From NCBI RefSeq assembly GCF_000689395.1, contig NZ_HG966617.1:1363274-1427273 (forward strand): DNA of 64,000 bases. The letters run 5' to 3'. Origin of the DNA: Candidatus Phaeomarinobacter ectocarpi. GTDB lineage: Bacteria > Pseudomonadota > Alphaproteobacteria > CGMCC-115125. Within the stretch, counting starts at the first letter, position 1. The number at the start of each line of letters is the position of its first letter. The translations under genes were made by a program, and so were the position numbers. The notes under the pieces are model-generated. The model was given only the letters and a program-made list of their open reading frames with translations, was not told where the DNA came from and made no database searches. Below, piece by piece: positions 9,364 through 47,946 of the stretch.

Positions 9364-10506
9364 ATGCTCAGCCCCCATGACACCGAAGAACGCCGTCAGT
9401 TCCGCGATACGGTTCGCCGTTTTGTTGACACGGAAGTCCGCCCCCATGCGGATGAGTGGGACGAGGCGGAGGAGATTCCCTGGGAACTGCACGAGAAGGC
9501 AGGCGCGCTGGGCGTCTTTGGCTTTGGCATCGACGAAGCATATGGCGGCCTTGGTATGGACGACGCCTTCCTGCGCATGGCGTGGATGGAGGAAATGGGC
9601 AAGTCCGGGGCGAACGGGGTCCTCGCCGCGCTTGTGGGACGGACGATTTCTCTGGACCCGATCCAGAAACTGGCAACTGAGGAAATTCGCGAGCGGGTAC
9701 TCCCGGACGTGGTTGCAGGCCGCAAGGGATCGAGCCTGGCCATTACGGAACCATCCGGTGGGTCTGACGTCGCCAACATGAAAACCAGGGCTCACAAGGA
9801 CGGAAATTCCTGGGTGCTCAACGGGTCCAAGACCTTCATCACCGGCGGCATGAAAAGCGACTACTTTGTCGTCGGCGCCCGTACCGGCGGCGAAGGTCTC
9901 AACGACATTTCATTGTTCTTCGTTGAAAAGGACGCGCCCGGGTTTGAGCGCACCAAGCTGGGCAAGAAGATGGGCTGGTGGGCGTCAGATCAGGCGACAC
10001 TTTATTTCGACAATTGCCGCGTCCCCGCTGAAAATCTCATGGGCGAAGAAGGCCGCGGCTTTATCGAGATCATGAAGAACTTCAATCTTGAGCGCGTCGG
10101 GCTGACAGCTGAAGCTCTGGGCATGATGAAGGAAGCGCTGCGCTGCTCCATTGAGTGGGCACAGGAGCGCGAGACATTCGGCGCTCCAATGATCCAGCAT
10201 CAGGTCATCCGGCACAAAATTGCCGACATGTCCGCCAAGACGGATGCACTCGATGCCTACCTGCAGCAGATCTGTTACGCCATCAATGAGGGCGACATGC
10301 CGGTCGCAGAAATCTGCAAGGCGAAGTTCTTCGGCACGAAGGCATTGGAATTTGTGGCTTCCGAAGCCATGCAAATTCTGGGCGGCGCTGGCTATCTGCG
10401 CGGCAATTCGGTCGAGCGGATTTACCGGGAGGTCAAGGTTCTGGCCATCGGTGGTGGCTCAGAAGAAATCATGCGTGACCTGGCGGTGCGCCAGATGGGG
10501 CTTTAG
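9364..10506 (+). CDS. atuD: Acyl-CoA dehydrogenase, AtuD-like (citronellyl-CoA dehydrogenase candidate)
   Basis: FAD-dependent alpha,beta-dehydrogenase of an acyl-CoA, 380 residues with the usual N-terminal helical, central beta (SLAITEPSGGSDVANM, 124-139) and C-terminal helical domains. The place of the MCAD catalytic Glu is glycine (AIGGGSEEIM), while Glu243 sits in FNLERVGL, matching the catalytic base of isovaleryl-CoA and long-chain enzymes. That arrangement fits a branched substrate. GAGGAG stands seven bases before the ATG. Its stop overlaps by four bases the stop of the convergent TetR gene. With AtuR, AtuA, AtuC, AtuE and AtuF around it, the likely reaction is citronellyl-CoA to geranyl-CoA. 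Confidence 0.85.
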   Translation: MLSPHDTEERRQFRDTVRRFVDTEVRPHADEWDEAEEIPWELHEKAGALGVFGFGIDEAYGGLGMDDAFLRMAWMEEMGKSGANGVLAALVGRTISLDPIQKLATEEIRERVLPDVVAGRKGSSLAITEPSGGSDVANMKTRAHKDGNSWVLNGSKTFITGGMKSDYFVVGARTGGEGLNDISLFFVEKDAPGFERTKLGKKMGWWASDQATLYFDNCRVPAENLMGEEGRGFIEIMKNFNLERVGLTAEALGMMKEALRCSIEWAQERETFGAPMIQHQVIRHKIADMSAKTDALDAYLQQICYAINEGDMPVAEICKAKFFGTKALEFVASEAMQILGGAGYLRGNSVERIYREVKVLAIGGGSEEIMRDLAVRQMGL

Positions 10507-41876: not shown

Positions 41877-42193
41877 TGGATTGATTCCACATGCTGATCA
41901 TGAGGACACGAAGGTTTGGTCGCGGATTTTGCGCGATCTGCAAGTGATAAAACATAGACACTGTTGGCTTTGGAACGGTGATCTCAATGGAGATGAGCGG
42001 TACCGCCAAGTTATCTCGCTACAGCCCGAGAGAATTTATCCAGTGTCCAAATTTCAAAATCAATTTCAATTAGAGCCTTGGCTTCAGCACAAAGGATTGG
42101 GTGGGCTTCACCCTCTCGACACCAATCAATTTGGGAATTATCCCCTTGAAGCAAGTATAATAAGCCCCTATATTGAAGTCATCGGAGGATACG
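41877..42193. other. Junction between core operon and accessory island
   Basis: About 320 bases with a higher A+T content. A 120-codon frame (41881-42243, TTG start) contains CWLWNG, reminiscent of HNH leader motifs, but it has no ribosome site and reads into the transposase start, so I do not accept it as a gene. TATAAT at 42156-42161 may be a promoter -10 for the transposase. No clear terminal repeat of the insertion element was found. Confidence 0.35.
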
Positions 42194-43069
42194 ATGGCTT
42201 CTCAACTCACAGTTCGCGACTTTTTCAAACGCTTCCCGGATGACGAGGCTTGCCTTACGCACATCATGCAGGTGCGTTACGGCCTAAAGCACGATTGCCG
42301 GGCTTGCGGCGTTGAAGCGACGTTCCACCGTATGAGCAACCGCCGGGCCTATGCGTGTTCCCATTGTGGCGACCACCTGTACCCGACTGCTGGCACTATC
42401 TTTGAGAACACGCGGACGCCCCTGCAACTCTGGTTCTATGCAATTTACCTGTTTGTCACGACGCGCCACGGCGTATCCGGTAAGGAACTGGAGCGCTCGC
42501 TCGGCGTGACCTACAAGACGGCTTGGCGCATGGGCCAGCAAATCCGCGACCTTATGACCAAGGCCGACCAGTTCGACATGCTGCAAGGCCACGTTGAACT
42601 TGATGAGGCTTATGTGGGTGGTCACCGCCCCGGCAAGCGTGGTCGCGGTGCGGCGGGCAAGACGATTGTGATGGGCCTCAAAGAGCGGGATGGCCGCATC
42701 AAGGCCGAAGTGATCCCGAACGTTAAAATGCCCACGCTTCGCGGTGTGGTACTTCGCAATGTTGAGGAAGGCGCTACCGTCTCAACGGACGAACTCATGT
42801 CCTACGGCTTACTGGAAGGCGACGGCTACAAGCACGGTGCCGTGAAGCATGGCGCTAAGGAATGGGCCTATTACGACTACCGGCATGATGCTCTGCACCA
42901 CACTAACAGCGTCGAGTCGTTCTGGCGTCTGTTCAAGAAGTCGGTTGCCGGTACGCATATCCATGTGTCTCAGAAATACATGGGCCGCTACCTTGGCGAG
43001 TTCACTTTTCGGGCGAACCACCGCCAGATGGAGAACGCGATGTTTGATCTTCTGATTGGTGCGGTCTAG
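42194..43069 (+). mobile_element. IS1595-family transposase
   Basis: 291 residues, full length. N-terminal zinc ribbon (Cys35, Cys38, Cys55, Cys58), then helix-turn-helix (KELERSLGVTYKTAWRMGQ), then the ISXO2-like DDE/N catalytic domain: Asp137 in VELDEAYVGG, Asp199 in STDELMSY and Asn238/Glu241 in HHTNSVESFW. GGAGG precedes the ATG. Codon usage is more GC-rich than the genes to its right. Terminal inverted repeats and target duplication could not be defined by eye, so the copy may be degenerate at its ends. Confidence 0.9.
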
Positions 43070-43202
43070 CAACGGCCTTGAGTGCGTCGCCATATTCTTT
43101 GGCATCAATCGGCCCTACGCCACGAGCCTCTTCTTGATCTGCAAAATCGTCTAAGCGATTCAAATCTATAGCCTTTCTAAGACTTAAGCGTTCATCTGCC
43201 AT
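43002..43202 (-). CDS. Small ORF antisense to the transposase 3' end (66 aa)
   Basis: An open frame of 66 codons reads MADERLSLRKAIDLNRLDDF...; the first 45 residues are helical and acidic, the last 20 (SEDQTSRSPSGGGSPEK) lie on the strand opposite to the transposase C-terminus. Similar small proteins seem to accompany some alphaproteobacterial insertion sequences, but I can only recall that loosely. No strong ribosome site. It may be a real passenger gene or a chance frame. Confidence 0.35.
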   Translation of the reverse strand: MADERLSLRKAIDLNRLDDFADQEEARGVGPIDAKEYGDALKAVARPHQSEDQTSRSPSGGGSPEK

Positions 43203-43404
43203 TCTTAACCAACTGAAAAACTTGACGGAATCCGAATAGATTCCTAGTAATAGTACTGCCCCGGCAGGCCGTTGCCTACCGGGGACAGGCGAGCGTCGGT
43301 CCCTTGCTAACGCAAGGTTAGCGAAGCCCTAGCTAAGCTAACAAGACGGCTTGCCACATGGGATACTCCTTTTCTCCCGCGACGGGTCTGGGGGTGTGCC
43401 GCGA
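43203..43404 (-). promoter_or_regulatory. Leader peptide with alternative hairpins (attenuator-like)
   Basis: On the minus strand a strong AAGGAG lies six bases before ATG TGG CAA GCC GTC TTG TTA GCT TAG (43359-43333), an eight-residue peptide. GTTAGC inside its last codons (43342-43337) can pair with GCTAAC (43322-43317), which can instead pair with GTTAGC (43311-43306). A GC-rich hairpin follows (43259-43284, 11-bp stem, one mismatch). This resembles translational attenuation upstream of the 66-residue ORF. Confidence 0.4.
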
Positions 43405-44058
43405 TCAGGAAAGCATGTCATTCCATGCCTCCTGATCATCTGACCCGGATGACTGATCATCGTCCGGGGTAGCGGTGGAGCCGGAGGGAATCGAACCCTC
43501 GGGGGCAGAAGGTGGGAAGCCCTTCCCCCGGCCAGTGACCGGCCCCACGTTAGAACTTGAAGGCCTCGCTTCGGCGGGGCCTTCTCGCATTTTGAACCAA
43601 AGAGAACCGCGCTTCTCCACCTGGTCGCTGTCTTTAAGGCGGTGAAGTGTTGTCCGGACTGTCGTGGCTGTGACGCTGGGCATGCCTAGGCTGGCCATCT
43701 TGTCGCGCAATTCGCTTGGTGAGCGTCCACGTTCTGGATGGTCAAACAGGTCGAACACTTCAAGGATGGCGTTTTTTGTCGCACCCCGCTTGGCGCGTTT
43801 GGGTGGGGTTGAGGCGGACAGGTCGGCGCGATCCACAACTTCAGCGGTTGCGCCGTCGACAGTTTGGCCTGCCAGCACTCGCTCGAGGGCAAGTTGCATC
43901 TCTTTCTGGATAGCGGAGGCTGACTCTGCGCGAGCTTCCGCCGCACCGGCTGTTTTGCCAGCGTGGTAGATGTGGAGGACAAGTTGCTCAAGGTGCGTCG
44001 ACAGTCGACGGATGTACTCGAGGGCCTCATCCAGATCAGACTCGGGTGAACCGCTCAT
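43405..44058 (-). CDS. Coiled-coil / winged-helix protein, third gene of the island operon
   Basis: 217 residues, not assigned to a family. Residues 8-65 form a long amphipathic helix, likely coiled coil; residues 92-157 read as a winged helix (AILEVFDLFDHPERGRSPSELRDKM..VRTTLHRLKDSDQVEKRG). The last 60 residues are low-complexity and are encoded by DNA with strong RNA-like hairpins, so the natural end of the protein may once have been near residue 158. ATG at 44058 overlaps the PIN gene's TGA (ATGA). A sensor or transcription regulator for the operon is a fair guess. Confidence 0.65.
   Translation of the reverse strand: MSGSPESDLDEALEYIRRLSTHLEQLVLHIYHAGKTAGAAEARAESASAIQKEMQLALERVLAGQTVDGATAEVVDRADLSASTPPKRAKRGATKNAILEVFDLFDHPERGRSPSELRDKMASLGMPSVTATTVRTTLHRLKDSDQVEKRGSLWFKMREGPAEARPSSSNVGPVTGRGKGFPPSAPEGSIPSGSTATPDDDQSSGSDDQEAWNDMLS
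43474..43546 (-). other. tRNA-like minihelix (acceptor and T arm) inside the coding region
   Basis: On the minus strand GGGGCCG (43546-43540) pairs with CGGCTCC (43483-43477), seven pairs with a G-U at position 3-70, then A and CC. The T arm GAGGG-TTCGATT-CCCTC (43500-43484) is canonical. In the 39 bases between there is no D arm but a 9-bp stem (GGGGGAAGG with CCTT..CCCCC). Its 73-base length is that of a tRNA. It may be a degenerate tRNA-Ala, an integration site remnant, or a tRNA mimic. Confidence 0.5.
43559..43584. other. Strong hairpin with TTCG tetraloop in coding sequence
   Basis: GAAGGCCTCGC (43559-43569) pairs with GCGGGGCCTTC (43574-43584) around TTCG: 11 pairs, one of them T-G. 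It lies just past the winged-helix domain, 12 bases before the tRNA-like element. Confidence 0.6.
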
Positions 44059-44876
44059 GTAGCGTAACATACTTGAGCCGGCATGCCGCGCAAGCACTTT
44101 TTGCCCATTGGTACGCCCCGTTCGCAACATGTTCTGAATGGGGGTTTTGTTATTCTACTTGCGTCAAGGGGATAAACCCCATCAATTTTTCCATCGTTGG
44201 TAACTAGTATCAATTTAGACGGCATTTGTATTGTTTCAGAAATTGACAGCAGCCCAAAAAGTAAATCTACCCAAACATAAAAGTCTCCGTCGCCGTCATC
44301 ACGGAAGCCGGGCGGCGTTTTTACCCTTTTTCGGTGCCGGGCGACCTGCTGGAAAGCCATGCGTGGTGCATAAGGAACAATTGCATTGTCGGCTAGAGTT
44401 TCCAGAAAAGTAATCGTTTTACGAACGGTGTCAGGATGAAATAGTTCGCTATTTTCGTCTTTGAATGCTTCAAGCCCATCGCTAATTTTTGTGAACGATT
44501 CGCTATTGGTTTTTTTGTACTTGTTGACTTCGCTCTGAAAAGTATCAAATTTTTTCTGCATTCCTTTAGAGATAGAATCAACCGCAGCCAGCTGGTTGTT
44601 CCAGTATTCTTGGATGACTTGTCCAGGCAAGATAATTGGGCCGGAATGCTGTCCGGACAAGTAGTCAACAACATCAGAGCTTTTTTCATGCTGCGGTATC
44701 CTTAGGACGGCATTGGAATCAATAGCTATAGCAGCATCCGCCAGAGTAGCCGCGTCGTCATTGGCCTTCAGAGCAGAGATCAGAGCTTTAAGAGCTGGAA
44801 TTTCAACTCTTCTGTCAAAGACCTCCAGCATCCTTTCAACAATTGCATCGGCACTTGGTGAAGTGCCGCTAGTCAT
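44055..44876 (-). CDS. PIN-like domain nuclease (PIN_8 type)
   Basis: 273 residues. The four acidic PIN residues are visible: Asp53 (AIDSNAVLRI), Glu90 (LPGQVIQEYW), Asp198 (GFRDDGDGDFYVW) and Asp228 (ILVTNDGKIDG), with the PPGF motif of the PIN_8 branch. The domain is predicted to be a metal-dependent RNase or flap-type nuclease. A 44-residue helical N-terminus precedes it and a Cys-rich tail (TCCERGVPMGKKC) follows. Its ATG lies inside the last codons of the DUF262 gene (8-bp overlap), so the two are translationally coupled. Confidence 0.78.
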   Translation of the reverse strand: MTSGTSPSADAIVERMLEVFDRRVEIPALKALISALKANDDAATLADAAIAIDSNAVLRIPQHEKSSDVVDYLSGQHSGPIILPGQVIQEYWNNQLAAVDSISKGMQKKFDTFQSEVNKYKKTNSESFTKISDGLEAFKDENSELFHPDTVRKTITFLETLADNAIVPYAPRMAFQQVARHRKRVKTPPGFRDDGDGDFYVWVDLLFGLLSISETIQMPSKLILVTNDGKIDGVYPLDASRITKPPFRTCCERGVPMGKKCLRGMPAQVCYAT

Positions 44877-46485
44877 ACCAGATGTTCCCAGCGGTTTCTG
44901 CCAAGCGTTCTCCAATAGATCTAACAGCTTCGACATTCCATGCCTCGTGCCCAGCCAGCTCATCTGTCCATTCACCGTCGATCGCTGTAGGAAACAATGC
45001 TTCCTTGACGCCCTTCCAAGTCAATGCACCTTCAGGTCTCCTGCTTTCATTGGACAATAAGGTATTGCCAATTCGCGGTACCCAGATAGAGCGCTCGTCG
45101 TCGCTAAATCCGGGCCAATTGGTCGTAGTTCTCGGGAGGATAAAGTGCAGCGTGTGGTATTCACTAGGGGCAATAGTTTCGCCAATTATTGAACTTCGCA
45201 GAAATGTCAAGATACCTTTATTGAAGGAACGCCTCTTCAATTGATTAATAAAGTCGTCTTTGCTGGGGTTGAGATCTGCAAGTTCTGTCTCCAGAAATGT
45301 CCAAGTCTTGTCATCAAAAACTCTTTTTGCGGCATCGGAAAATCGTCTTTCAATGTTACCTGTACCAAGCGTACCGACAACCATCCTCCGAACGACCAGT
45401 TTTAAAACGTATTCAAGGCCCTCACGCGGATTCGGCAAATCGCTGATAGCCATCATCAGGGGACGGACTGTGATTACATTGAGTTGGTTGAGCGCAAGAA
45501 ACACCCGCAGCGCAAAGTCGTCTGCTGGTCCGGAAAGTGCTGGATCGACGATTTGAGAGTACAATGGAAACCGGGACTCTAATAGATCTAAGAGGCCGTA
45601 GGCCGTAGGTGGTTCCTTTGTTGATGATTTGTTTCTCCCTGCAAGGAATGCAAAAAGGTCGCGAGGCAAGACATGCCCGCTCTCTACCGTCACAGCATGT
45701 CGTATGAACTGGACATAGCTGGTCGAGCCAGAGGACGGGAAAGCGCCCGCAAGGTCTTGCCACCGTTTGTAAATAGCAAGCTTCTCACCTTCTTTTACTT
45801 GGCTCAGTATATAGTTCTTCAGCAGATCCGCCGTCGTAAGATCTCTACCTCTAGTGTTGATAACTTCAAACAGGCTATAGACCGTTGCGGGATCTGGGTG
45901 TGCAAAAACGGCAAAATAGAGCTTGTGAGTTATAAACTCCGTCCATTTTCCAAGCCGCTTAAACGGATCGGACGCCAAATCCGCAGCTAGTGATCTTGAG
46001 ACTAGTTCAAAAGATTCACGCATTTGCGCGGAGACCCCCTCCGCGTCCTTGGCCTTTTTTGCGTTTGAGCCATGGTCAATGATGTCTTGAAGCGTCTCGT
46101 TGTCCTTGGGATCAGTCAAGATAACTCGCGGATCTGTCTCATCAGTAGCGTAGTCAATTGAACGCAAAAAGTCTGCTTGGAGGCGGTCTGCGAGCGCCTC
46201 TCGACCACGATTCTTTGCTTCATGGTAAAGTGCAGCAGCAAGCAGACTTAGAGTCACGATCCGCTGTTGCCCATCAACTATCTGCCGCCGAGATTCCTTT
46301 TCTGTAATTATCACCAGCCCTAAGAAATAGCTCTCTTGATCCAAGGCACCTTGAATATCATTGAAGAATTCTCTGACTTCGTCGCTGGTCCAAGAGTACT
46401 CTCGCTGAAATGGTGGTACTTCGAAAACCGAGCTCGAGAAGAGCGACCCGGCTGTGCTCGCATTTGCATTTAATTCGTTTTGCAC
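44869..46485 (-). CDS. DUF262 protein with C-terminal DUF1524-like domain (GmrSD/SspE architecture)
   Basis: 538 residues. DUF262 signatures PPFQREYSWTSDEV (24-37) and QIVDGQQRIVTL (68-79) form the ParB-like NTPase/nuclease domain of GmrS and SspE. A helical middle follows. Near residues 438-480 EYHTLHFILPR...GNTLLSNES resembles the HNH (DUF1524) end, but the position of the usual catalytic His of EHILP is Phe. Proteins of this type restrict modified phage DNA. Start is GTG with AAGGG upstream. First gene of the three-gene operon; A+T-rich codons unlike its neighbours indicate horizontal origin. Confidence 0.82.
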   Translation of the reverse strand: MQNELNANASTAGSLFSSSVFEVPPFQREYSWTSDEVREFFNDIQGALDQESYFLGLVIITEKESRRQIVDGQQRIVTLSLLAAALYHEAKNRGREALADRLQADFLRSIDYATDETDPRVILTDPKDNETLQDIIDHGSNAKKAKDAEGVSAQMRESFELVSRSLAADLASDPFKRLGKWTEFITHKLYFAVFAHPDPATVYSLFEVINTRGRDLTTADLLKNYILSQVKEGEKLAIYKRWQDLAGAFPSSGSTSYVQFIRHAVTVESGHVLPRDLFAFLAGRNKSSTKEPPTAYGLLDLLESRFPLYSQIVDPALSGPADDFALRVFLALNQLNVITVRPLMMAISDLPNPREGLEYVLKLVVRRMVVGTLGTGNIERRFSDAAKRVFDDKTWTFLETELADLNPSKDDFINQLKRRSFNKGILTFLRSSIIGETIAPSEYHTLHFILPRTTTNWPGFSDDERSIWVPRIGNTLLSNESRRPEGALTWKGVKEALFPTAIDGEWTDELAGHEAWNVEAVRSIGERLAETAGNIWYD

Positions 46486-46782
46486 TGGGACCCTTCTTCG
46501 ACTTTCAAAAGTTAAGCTTAGTTTCAGAGAACACCTTGCCGCTAGCGGTTGAGGTATTCAATGGATTTAGCCAAGCTACAGCGTCTCCGCGCAAATAGTG
46601 AGGACGTCTTTTCCGTCGTCGAAAAATTGCTATCTCAACAACTAATTGTCCGCCTAGGAAATATGGCATGCTAGCTGTCTTGGCGCCGAGAAGGTCAAAA
46701 AAGTCCGCATTGAAGTCATCCGACCATTGCTGAAGCGACGGTATCAGGCATCCACGTCAAATCACTAAAAAAGGACACATGC
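46486..46782. other. Right edge of the accessory island
   Basis: Just under 300 A+T-rich bases that contain the divergent promoter of the DUF262 operon. A 37-codon frame lies at 46561-46674, and further right a frame ending at 46768 reads EKVKKVRIEVIRPLLKRRYQ without a start, possibly the tail of a lost gene. No copy of the tRNA-like sequence was found here. Confidence 0.35.
46561..46674 (+). CDS. Possible 37-residue small protein
   Basis: MDLAKLQRLRANSEDVFSVV... is helical and protein-like, with GAGG six bases before the ATG. It ends in TAG; reading resumes in another frame a few codons later, so it could also be the 5' piece of a broken gene. Divergent from the DUF262 gene. Confidence 0.25.
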   Translation: MDLAKLQRLRANSEDVFSVVEKLLSQQLIVRLGNMAC

Positions 46783-47946
46783 ATGCTGCGATATCTGGCT
46801 TGGGGAGCAGCGGGACTTGTCGCGCTGATTGCGATTGGGGGTGCTGCGGCGTACCTGTTCCGTGGGGAGCTGGTTGCCTATTACGTCAATCCGGGAAAAC
46901 CGTTTGCCGCGTTCACGCCGCCTGCGGCACCAGACTATGAGACACCCGACGCCTGGGCCGCCATGCCCGGTCGGGCGGATACGGCTGATCTGAGCCCGGC
47001 GGGCATGTCACCGGCTGTCGCAGATGACGCCGCGCGGATCGATGTCTTCTTCATCCATCCAACCACGTTCCTCTCCAGCGACGCATGGAACGCGGACATC
47101 AACGAAGTGGCCTCTCGCTACATCATCGACAATGCGGTGATGGCGCATCAGGCCAGTGCCTACAATCTGGCCGGTCGGATTTATGCGCCGCGCTACCGTC
47201 AGGCGGGCATCTATGCCTTCATGGAACCCTGGGCGGAGCTTGACGAGTCTCAGGGAGAACTGGCGCTCGACCTTGCCTATCAGGATGTGGCGCGGGCGTT
47301 CGAGACGTATATTCGCCTCTACAACAATGGCCGTCCCTTCATCCTTGCCGCCCACAGTCAGGGCTCGCTGCACCTCATTCGCCTGATGCAGGACTATCTC
47401 AAGCGTCCCGAGCTCAAGCAGCGGCTTGTTGCGGCCTATCCCGTCGGCATGTCCATGCCGTCGCACCTGTTTGACGGATTGTTGGCGCATGTTCCTCCGT
47501 GTACGGAGCCTGATCAGACGGGCTGCCTTGTCAGCTTCAACTCCTTTGGCCCCGAGGGGAATCCAAAAGTGTGGTTTGATCAGCAACGCATCTGGGAAGG
47601 CAGCGACCTCGTGCCCGTCGCCGGTCGCGCCATCAACTGTACCAATCCGCTCAGCTGGAGCGACGATGGCGAGGCTGCCGGCGGTGATCTGCACAAAGGT
47701 GCCCTGCCCTATGCAGCGGCCCTGGGCGAAGAACAGCCCGTGACCCGGCTGGCCGATCCGCAGGTGCTGGAGTTCTCAGTCCAGTGCCGCGATGGCATTG
47801 CTTACATGGATCAATTGCCGCCCGAAGAGTTTGGTGAGTTGGTGTTCGAGAACGAGGACTACCACGTCTACGACTACAATCTCTTCTATGGCTCGATCCG
47901 CGAAAACGCGGCATTGCGCGCTGCAGCATATATGGCGGTTCAGTAG
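46783..47946 (+). CDS. DUF3089 alpha/beta-hydrolase, membrane-anchored
   Basis: 387 residues. One N-terminal hydrophobic helix (residues 5-27) anchors or exports the protein. The DUF3089 signature FFIHPTTFLSSDAWNAD and nucleophile Ser192 in AAHSQGSLHLIRL are present. The family is an esterase/lipase-like branch of the alpha/beta fold without assigned substrates. It marks the return to core-like GC-rich DNA. Confidence 0.86.
   Translation: MLRYLAWGAAGLVALIAIGGAAAYLFRGELVAYYVNPGKPFAAFTPPAAPDYETPDAWAAMPGRADTADLSPAGMSPAVADDAARIDVFFIHPTTFLSSDAWNADINEVASRYIIDNAVMAHQASAYNLAGRIYAPRYRQAGIYAFMEPWAELDESQGELALDLAYQDVARAFETYIRLYNNGRPFILAAHSQGSLHLIRLMQDYLKRPELKQRLVAAYPVGMSMPSHLFDGLLAHVPPCTEPDQTGCLVSFNSFGPEGNPKVWFDQQRIWEGSDLVPVAGRAINCTNPLSWSDDGEAAGGDLHKGALPYAAALGEEQPVTRLADPQVLEFSVQCRDGIAYMDQLPPEEFGELVFENEDYHVYDYNLFYGSIRENAALRAAAYMAVQ

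What the first reader, a model, noticed from the sequence alone, without database searches (positions are those of the whole stretch)
43405..46485. Three-gene island operon: DUF262/DUF1524-like protein, PIN-like nuclease, coiled-coil winged-helix protein
The genes overlap by 8 and 4 bp, share A+T-rich composition unlike their neighbours and lie beside an IS1595 transposase. DUF262 proteins with an HNH end restrict modified phage DNA (GmrSD, SspE). I recall no described system that joins such a protein with a PIN_8 nuclease and a third wHTH gene, so this may be a new defence or abortive-infection module with DNA recognition, RNA cutting and control in one transcript.
Basis: partly seen in the sequence, partly recalled or inferred. 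Interest (0 to 1): 0.78.

Follow-up and report, generated by a model that had tools for sequence, protein, structure and literature searches.

The report
Sensor-nuclease pair broken by transposon
The supposed three-gene defence operon is really a widespread two-gene pair, a DNA-sensing protein that has lost its own cutting site plus a separate PIN nuclease, and in this genome the nuclease gene has been split by a jumping element that supplied the 'third gene'.

Summary
A 2,048-bp IS1595-family element (42133-44180) sits inside the PIN gene. It has 31-nt inverted repeats and a perfect 8-bp target duplication (ATCAATTT). The last 39 residues of the PIN protein resume on the far side. The wHTH ORF is cargo of that element; it is G+C-rich and absent from all related loci.

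What remains is real and conserved: a DUF262 gene followed directly by a PIN_8 gene, in 25 of 25 genome loci with a complete PIN gene plus 3 plasmids (Alpha-, Gammaproteobacteria, Actinobacteria). The linked DUF262 proteins form one fully supported clade. They keep the DGQQR NTPase motif, but their HNH (DUF1524) site is degenerate: the position of DndI N541, needed there for cutting and defence, is Arg in 25/25. The PIN acidic residues are intact.

Best reading: a GmrSD/DndI-type sensor that has handed the cutting to a separate PIN nuclease, broken in this genome. Defence function and the handover are inferred, not shown. I found no description of this pair in the papers I could search.

The parts
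44869..46485 (-). DUF262 (GmrSD_N) gene, 538 aa, GTG start; DGQQR motif kept, C-terminal HNH region degenerate; intact
44181..44876 (-). PIN_8 gene, first part (ATG 44876; 231 native residues); overlaps the DUF262 stop by 8 bp
42011..42132 (-). PIN_8 gene, last part (39 residues IDWCREGEAHPIL... and stop), separated from the first part by the IS
   Evidence: 60% identity over 35 residues to Rhizobium PIN, E 6e-13
42133..44180 (+). IS1595-family element, 2,048 bp, inserted in the PIN gene; single copy in the genome
42173..43069 (+). IS1595 transposase (NF033547, PF12762)
42133..42163 (+). left inverted repeat GGGAATTATCCCCTTGAAGCAAGTATAATAA
44150..44180 (-). right inverted repeat (reads GGGGTTTATCCCCTTGACGCAAGTAGAATAA on the minus strand)
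42125..42132 (.). 8-bp target duplication ATCAATTT, left copy
44181..44188 (.). 8-bp target duplication ATCAATTT, right copy
43405..44058 (-). coiled-coil/wHTH-like ORF (217 aa), cargo of the IS, not part of the DUF262-PIN module
44055..44180 (-). IS-derived 42-residue tail of the chimeric PIN reading frame, ending in ATGA at the wHTH start
41877..46782 (.). whole island, absent from three congeneric genomes where the flanking genes are 70-80 bp apart

Best explanation
The locus is a two-gene module (DUF262 sensor, then PIN_8 nuclease, overlapping by 8 bp) acquired as a small island and later broken by an IS1595 element that split the PIN gene and brought in the wHTH ORF. In intact relatives the DUF262 protein most likely works like DndI/SspE/BrxU up to the last step: the ParB/Srx-type DUF262 domain recognises a feature of DNA and hydrolyses NTP through DGQQR. 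Its own HNH site is dead, so the change of shape instead activates the co-translated PIN protein, which does the cutting. RNA cleavage with growth arrest is the likelier outcome given the VapC-like fold; DNA nicking is possible. Shown by sequence: the split gene, the conserved pair, the loss of HNH residues, the retention of DGQQR and of the PIN acids. Inferred: physical interaction, activation by NTP hydrolysis, the substrate, the trigger, and anti-phage defence itself.
For: IS boundaries, inverted repeats and 8-bp duplication; PIN C-terminus beyond the IS and an uninterrupted close relative. Pair in 25/25 genome loci with a complete PIN gene and 3/3 plasmids. Coupled evolution: Mantel r 0.79, 0/5000 permutations; one clade with 100/100 support. 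HNH degenerate: GmrSD_C found in 2/25 linked (best 1e-3) against 12/12 unlinked; E/D lost 25/25, His lost 23/25, second Asn to Arg 25/25, the position of DndI N541 whose Ala mutant loses nicking and protection (PMC11662687). DGQQR invariant. PIN D52, E89, D197 invariant. Fold: DndI 9jfl TM 0.70, then SspE and BrxU; PIN nearest VapC. Defence genes beside several copies.
Against: No experiment. The PIN-VapC structural match is weak (best E 0.02). Many copies have ordinary neighbours. One His is kept next to the expected position in 21/25, so a shifted, residual HNH activity cannot be fully excluded. Genome loci were collected through PIN, so DUF262 clade members without PIN could have been missed; the reverse test rests on 3 plasmids.
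Confidence: 0.6

Rival explanations
1. Toxin-antitoxin reading: the PIN protein is a constitutive VapC-like toxin and the DUF262 protein is mainly its neutraliser, with addiction or stress control as the main role.
For: PIN fold nearest VapC toxins; two coupled genes that always travel together.
Against: A 538-residue partner that keeps an NTPase motif and a DndI-like fold is unlike small VapB antitoxins; no small antitoxin gene is conserved at the loci.
Confidence: 0.2
2. The DUF262 protein still cuts DNA, through residual HNH residues or through the ParB/Srx domain, and the PIN protein is a second, auxiliary nuclease.
For: His447 is kept in 21/25 and the GN of the motif in 25/25; nuclease activity was proposed for the GmrS ParB/Srx fold (PMC4619093).
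Against: E/D absent and second Asn replaced by Arg in 25/25; Pfam GmrSD_C undetected in 23/25; the equivalent Asn is essential in DndI.
Confidence: 0.13
3. One reading: a three-gene defence operon in which the wHTH protein is a regulator or third component.
For: Overlapping ORFs on one strand; after insertion the cargo ORF may indeed be read from the DUF262 promoter (inference).
Against: The wHTH ORF lies inside a transposon with inverted repeats and target duplication; the PIN gene continues beyond it; wHTH absent from every other DUF262-PIN locus; different G+C.
Confidence: 0.02
4. The pair has a non-defence role, such as RNA quality control or plasmid/chromosome maintenance.
For: Many copies sit among ordinary genes; none is found in phage records and no confirmed relative of the PIN protein in viral contigs.
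Against: Patchy distribution (4 of 385 class genomes match, own included), island insertion absent from congeners, defence neighbours at several loci, relatives HEC-06/SspE/DndI are defence proteins.
Confidence: 0.12

Closest known systems
DndI and SspE (phosphorothioate-sensing DUF262-DUF1524 nickases)
   Same: Overall fold (DndI 9jfl TM 0.70), N-terminal DUF262 with DGQQR, similar length.
   Different: HNH residues lost, separate PIN gene always next door, dndC absent here and in most host genomes.
GmrSD / BrxU type IV restriction enzymes
   Same: GmrSD_N domain, DGQQR.
   Different: No intact GmrD/DUF1524 motif; a PIN protein in its place.
HEC-06 (PADLOC candidate system, reported as single-gene)
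   Same: Best PADLOC match over the full length (2.4e-79); all 25 members match.
   Different: This clade is always two genes; PADLOC has no model for the PIN partner.
Menshen (DUF262 gene with an OLD-type nuclease, as described in PMC10952713)
   Same: Idea: DUF262 protein without DUF1524 paired with another nuclease.
   Different: Different nuclease family; no sequence comparison made here.
ptuXYZ (PMC11980606)
   Same: DUF262 protein with a PIN-like protein in one operon.
   Different: ptuXYZ has an ATPase gene, its PIN domain lacks catalytic residues and is fused to a BECR RNase; here there are two genes and an intact PIN site.
IS1595-family elements with cargo genes
   Same: Transposase family, inverted repeats, 8-bp target duplication, extra ORF between transposase and right end, as in relatives L049, L079, L082, L084.
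   Different: The cargo ORF itself has no close relative found.

Membership tests
GmrSD-type (type IV) restriction enzymes | N-terminal GmrSD_N/DUF262 domain with DGQQR | tested here: met
   25/25 members match PF03235; DGQQR invariant
GmrSD-type (type IV) restriction enzymes | GmrD/DUF1524 HNH motifs (E/D)HxxP, GNLxLLxxxN, NxxFxxKK | tested here: not met
   PF07510 in 2/25, best 1e-3; E/D 0/25, His 2/25, second Asn 0/25; motifs as in PMC4619093
GmrSD-type (type IV) restriction enzymes | cuts modified DNA | not testable with these tools
   needs enzyme assays
HEC-06 | match to the PADLOC HEC-06 models | tested here: met
   2.4e-79 over residues 3-536; 25/25 members
HEC-06 | single-gene system | tested here: not met
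   PIN gene directly downstream in 25/25 complete loci and 3 plasmids; single-gene description from PMC12988326
Phosphorothioate-sensing systems (SspE/DndI) | host carries Dnd/Ssp DNA-sulfur modification genes | tested here: not met
   no dndC in this genome; over cut-off in 5 of 26 distinct module-bearing genomes
PIN-domain nucleases (PIN_8) | Pfam PIN_8 match and conserved acidic active-site residues | tested here: met
   25/25 match PF18476; D52, E89, D197 invariant, 203 and 227 always D/E
VapC toxins of VapBC | PIN protein of VapC fold with a small upstream antitoxin | tested here: not met
   weak VapC fold match (E 0.02); the upstream gene is a 538-aa DUF262 protein, no small antitoxin gene
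ptuXYZ | DUF262 gene, PtuA-like ATPase gene, PIN-like/BECR fusion gene | tested here: not met
   no gene between DUF262 and PIN at any locus; PIN acids intact
IS1595 insertion sequences | IS1595 transposase, terminal inverted repeats, 8-bp target duplication (the 8 bp from general knowledge) | tested here: met
   NF033547 2.8e-57; repeats and ATCAATTT on both sides

The most novel reading that the evidence does not exclude
DUF262-PIN is an undescribed, widespread two-gene defence system in which a DndI/SspE-type DNA sensor has lost its own HNH nuclease and instead switches on a PIN ribonuclease in trans, turning a DNA-restriction scaffold into an RNA-targeting abortive-infection system that PADLOC would at present hide under HEC-06.
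Probability: 0.4. Interest if true: 0.78.

Novelty: new variant of a known kind. Interest (0 to 1): 0.57.

Why it matters
How the DUF262 NTPase controls cutting in the widespread DUF262-HNH restriction proteins is still being worked out. A natural clade in which the HNH site is dead, and a separate nuclease gene follows in every complete locus found, separates sensor from cutter and lets each be tested alone. It also warns that gene-by-gene annotation will label such genes HEC-06 and miss the partner. The window itself shows how a transposon can forge a convincing but false operon.

Tried and rejected
Three-gene operon: rejected (IS boundaries; co-occurrence). Phosphorothioate sensing as the general trigger: tested with dndC in host genomes; present in a minority only and absent here. 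Phage-borne origin: no match for PIN in phage records or viral contigs; DUF262 hits in viral contigs are distant (at most 35% identity in short segments). E. coli genomes: no DNA match. Fold search of PIN gave only weak VapC matches, and the PDB sequence search only coiled-coil noise. Homology between the window's wHTH cargo and the coiled-coil cargo of a related IS (L084): not supported by sequence (E 0.18). Literature: PIN_8 mostly returned plant PIN transporters; no paper held both DUF262 and DUF4935.

Full report
Observation. The three ORFs exist with the stated overlaps: DUF262 46485-44869, the PIN ORF from ATG 44876 to 44055, and the wHTH ORF 44058-43405, all on the minus strand. Pfam gives GmrSD_N for the first (8.5e-33) with only a trace of GmrSD_C (0.22), PIN_8 for the second (2.7e-11) and nothing firm for the third. 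Composition does not unite them: G+C is 0.487 and 0.446 for the first two but 0.599 for the third, close to the transposase (0.571) and the window average (0.582).

A transposon forged the operon. The repeat search found a 32-nt inverted repeat pair at 42132-42163 and 44150-44181. Read with the target duplication, the element is 42133-44180 (2,048 bp), flanked on both sides by ATCAATTT. It encodes an IS1595 transposase (NF033547, 2.8e-57) and, on the other strand, the wHTH ORF. Immediately beyond the left end, in the frame that the duplication predicts, the minus strand encodes IDWCREGEAHPILCAEAKALIEIDFEIWTLDKFSRAVAR and a stop. This aligns with the C-terminal part of intact PIN proteins, 60% identical over 35 residues to that of Rhizobium rhododendri (E 6e-13). 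A close, uninterrupted relative crosses the insertion point (L007/L037). The listed PIN ORF is therefore a chimera of 231 native residues and a 42-residue tail read from the transposon. It lacks a conserved Asp-Trp, a His-Pro, a Glu and the last strand, so it is probably inactive (inference). The ATGA overlap with the wHTH start is simply where the chimeric frame happens to end.

The IS. It is single copy in this genome. Related IS1595 elements with 62-80% identical transposases share the TTATCCCCTTGA inverted repeat and carry other ORFs between transposase and right end: a two-gene cassette in L049, L079/L080 and L082, and a coiled-coil protein in L084. Cargo at this position is thus a habit of the group, and the third gene is cargo. 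The wHTH protein has no close relative among 385 class genomes or in plasmids, and I could not show homology to the L084 cargo.

History of the locus. In three congeneric genomes the flanking genes (YceI-like and the gene starting at 46783) sit about 70-80 bp apart; here 4.9 kb (41877-46782) separates them. So the DUF262-PIN pair arrived as a small island, and the IS entered it later.

The real module. A plasmid search with the native PIN part found three records; two are annotated DUF262 + PIN-like with 8-bp overlaps like the window, and the third (Nonomuraea) shows the same pair in unannotated DNA. A scan of 84,980 species genomes with a PIN alignment gave 27 loci. Two are a remnant or cut by a contig end (L034, L037). 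In all 25 others a DUF262 gene of the same clade ends next to the PIN start, mostly with candidate overlaps of 4-20 bp or gaps of 1-13 bp. Neither the wHTH nor the transposase was detected at any of them. Hosts are mostly Alphaproteobacteria, with Pseudomonas/Stutzerimonas and Actinobacteria. In the reverse direction, the three plasmid DUF262 proteins of this clade all carry PIN, while the next-best DUF262 proteins (about 26% identity) that I inspected do not. Distances of the two proteins correlate (r 0.79, 0 of 5000 permutations). The linked DUF262s form one branch with 100/100 support, though the unlinked set has long branches.

What the proteins can do. In the 25 aligned linked DUF262 proteins DGQQR is invariant, but the HNH motif is not kept. 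GmrSD_C is detected in 2/25 (best 1e-3) against 12/12 unlinked controls (best 7e-30). The controls keep E-H-x-x-P, both Asn and a Lys invariantly. In the linked set the E/D is replaced in 25/25, the His in 23/25, and the second Asn is Arg in 25/25. By the ungapped HMMER alignment this last position is N541 of DndI. In DndI, N541A sharply reduces nicking and removes phage protection, and R87A in DGQQR reduces protection (PMC11662687). The AlphaFold model of the window protein (pLDDT 86.5) is closest to DndI 9jfl (TM 0.70), then SspE and BrxU. In the PIN family the acids D52, E89 and D197 are invariant, and positions 203 and 227 are always D or E. Its model (pLDDT 86.3) is nearest to VapC toxins, though weakly.

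Mechanism. I commit to this: sensor and NTPase retained, own nuclease lost, cutting handed to the PIN protein encoded next door. Shown: the conserved pair, the motif losses and retentions, and the fold class of the sensor. Inferred: complex formation, activation by NTP hydrolysis, RNA as substrate, abortive infection, and the trigger. Phosphorothioate is not the general trigger: dndC is absent here and over cut-off in only 5 of 26 distinct module-bearing genomes, though commoner among the alphaproteobacterial ones (3 of about 20) than in the class sample (8/385; p 0.013 on small, biased numbers). Defence context is suggestive: a DpnII system, a site-specific methyltransferase with a helicase, Dnd genes or type I methyltransferases lie beside several copies, but many copies have ordinary neighbours.

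Comparison and novelty. The scaffold is known (GmrSD, BrxU, SspE, DndI, HEC-06). DUF262 proteins paired with other effectors are known (Menshen as described in PMC10952713; ptuXYZ in PMC11980606). I found no description of DUF262 + PIN_8 with a degenerate HNH in the open-access papers searched; subscription papers and preprints were not searchable. PADLOC would call the first gene HEC-06 and has no model for the second. I file it as a new variant of a known kind. In this particular genome the module is probably non-functional.

Noticed in passing
window 43473-43546 (-): Inside the IS cargo, overlapping the 3' end of the wHTH ORF, is a 74-nt tRNA-like structure matching the ends of tmRNA (Rfam RF00023, 38.3 bits, E 1.4e-13, below the gathering score 47): acceptor GGGGCCG/CGGCTCC, T-arm...CTCCACCG, with no mRNA-like part. 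The only such match in this genome within 2 mismatches.
   Followed up: partly
L112, about 9400-9480 (-) (viral contig IMGVR_UViG_3300023218_000275): A similar minimal tmRNA-like domain (GGGGCCGG...GAGGGTTCGATTCCCTCCGGCTCCACCA, about 75 nt, no coding part visible) occurs in a viral contig; a full tmRNA with the same 3' end is in L111.
   Followed up: no
L049:3883-5346, L079/L080, L082: IS1595 elements with the same inverted repeat carry a conserved two-gene cassette (about 252-268 aa and 172-183 aa) in the cargo position; it looks like a possible toxin-antitoxin or defence cassette, not analysed.
   Followed up: no
L084:3335-3910 (-) and L083:4551-5228: A related coiled-coil protein with an acidic tail (E 1e-53) occurs as cargo of one IS1595 element and near another IS1595 transposase.
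   Followed up: no
L010:4144-5807 and L030:6414-8010: The DUF262 gene appears frameshifted in these two relatives while PIN stays open, so other copies of the module may be decaying too.
   Followed up: no
L009, L023 (downstream of PIN): Actinobacterial copies lie beside genes that look like dndC and dndD (DNA phosphorothioation); dndC confirmed by family search in the L023 genome.
   Followed up: partly
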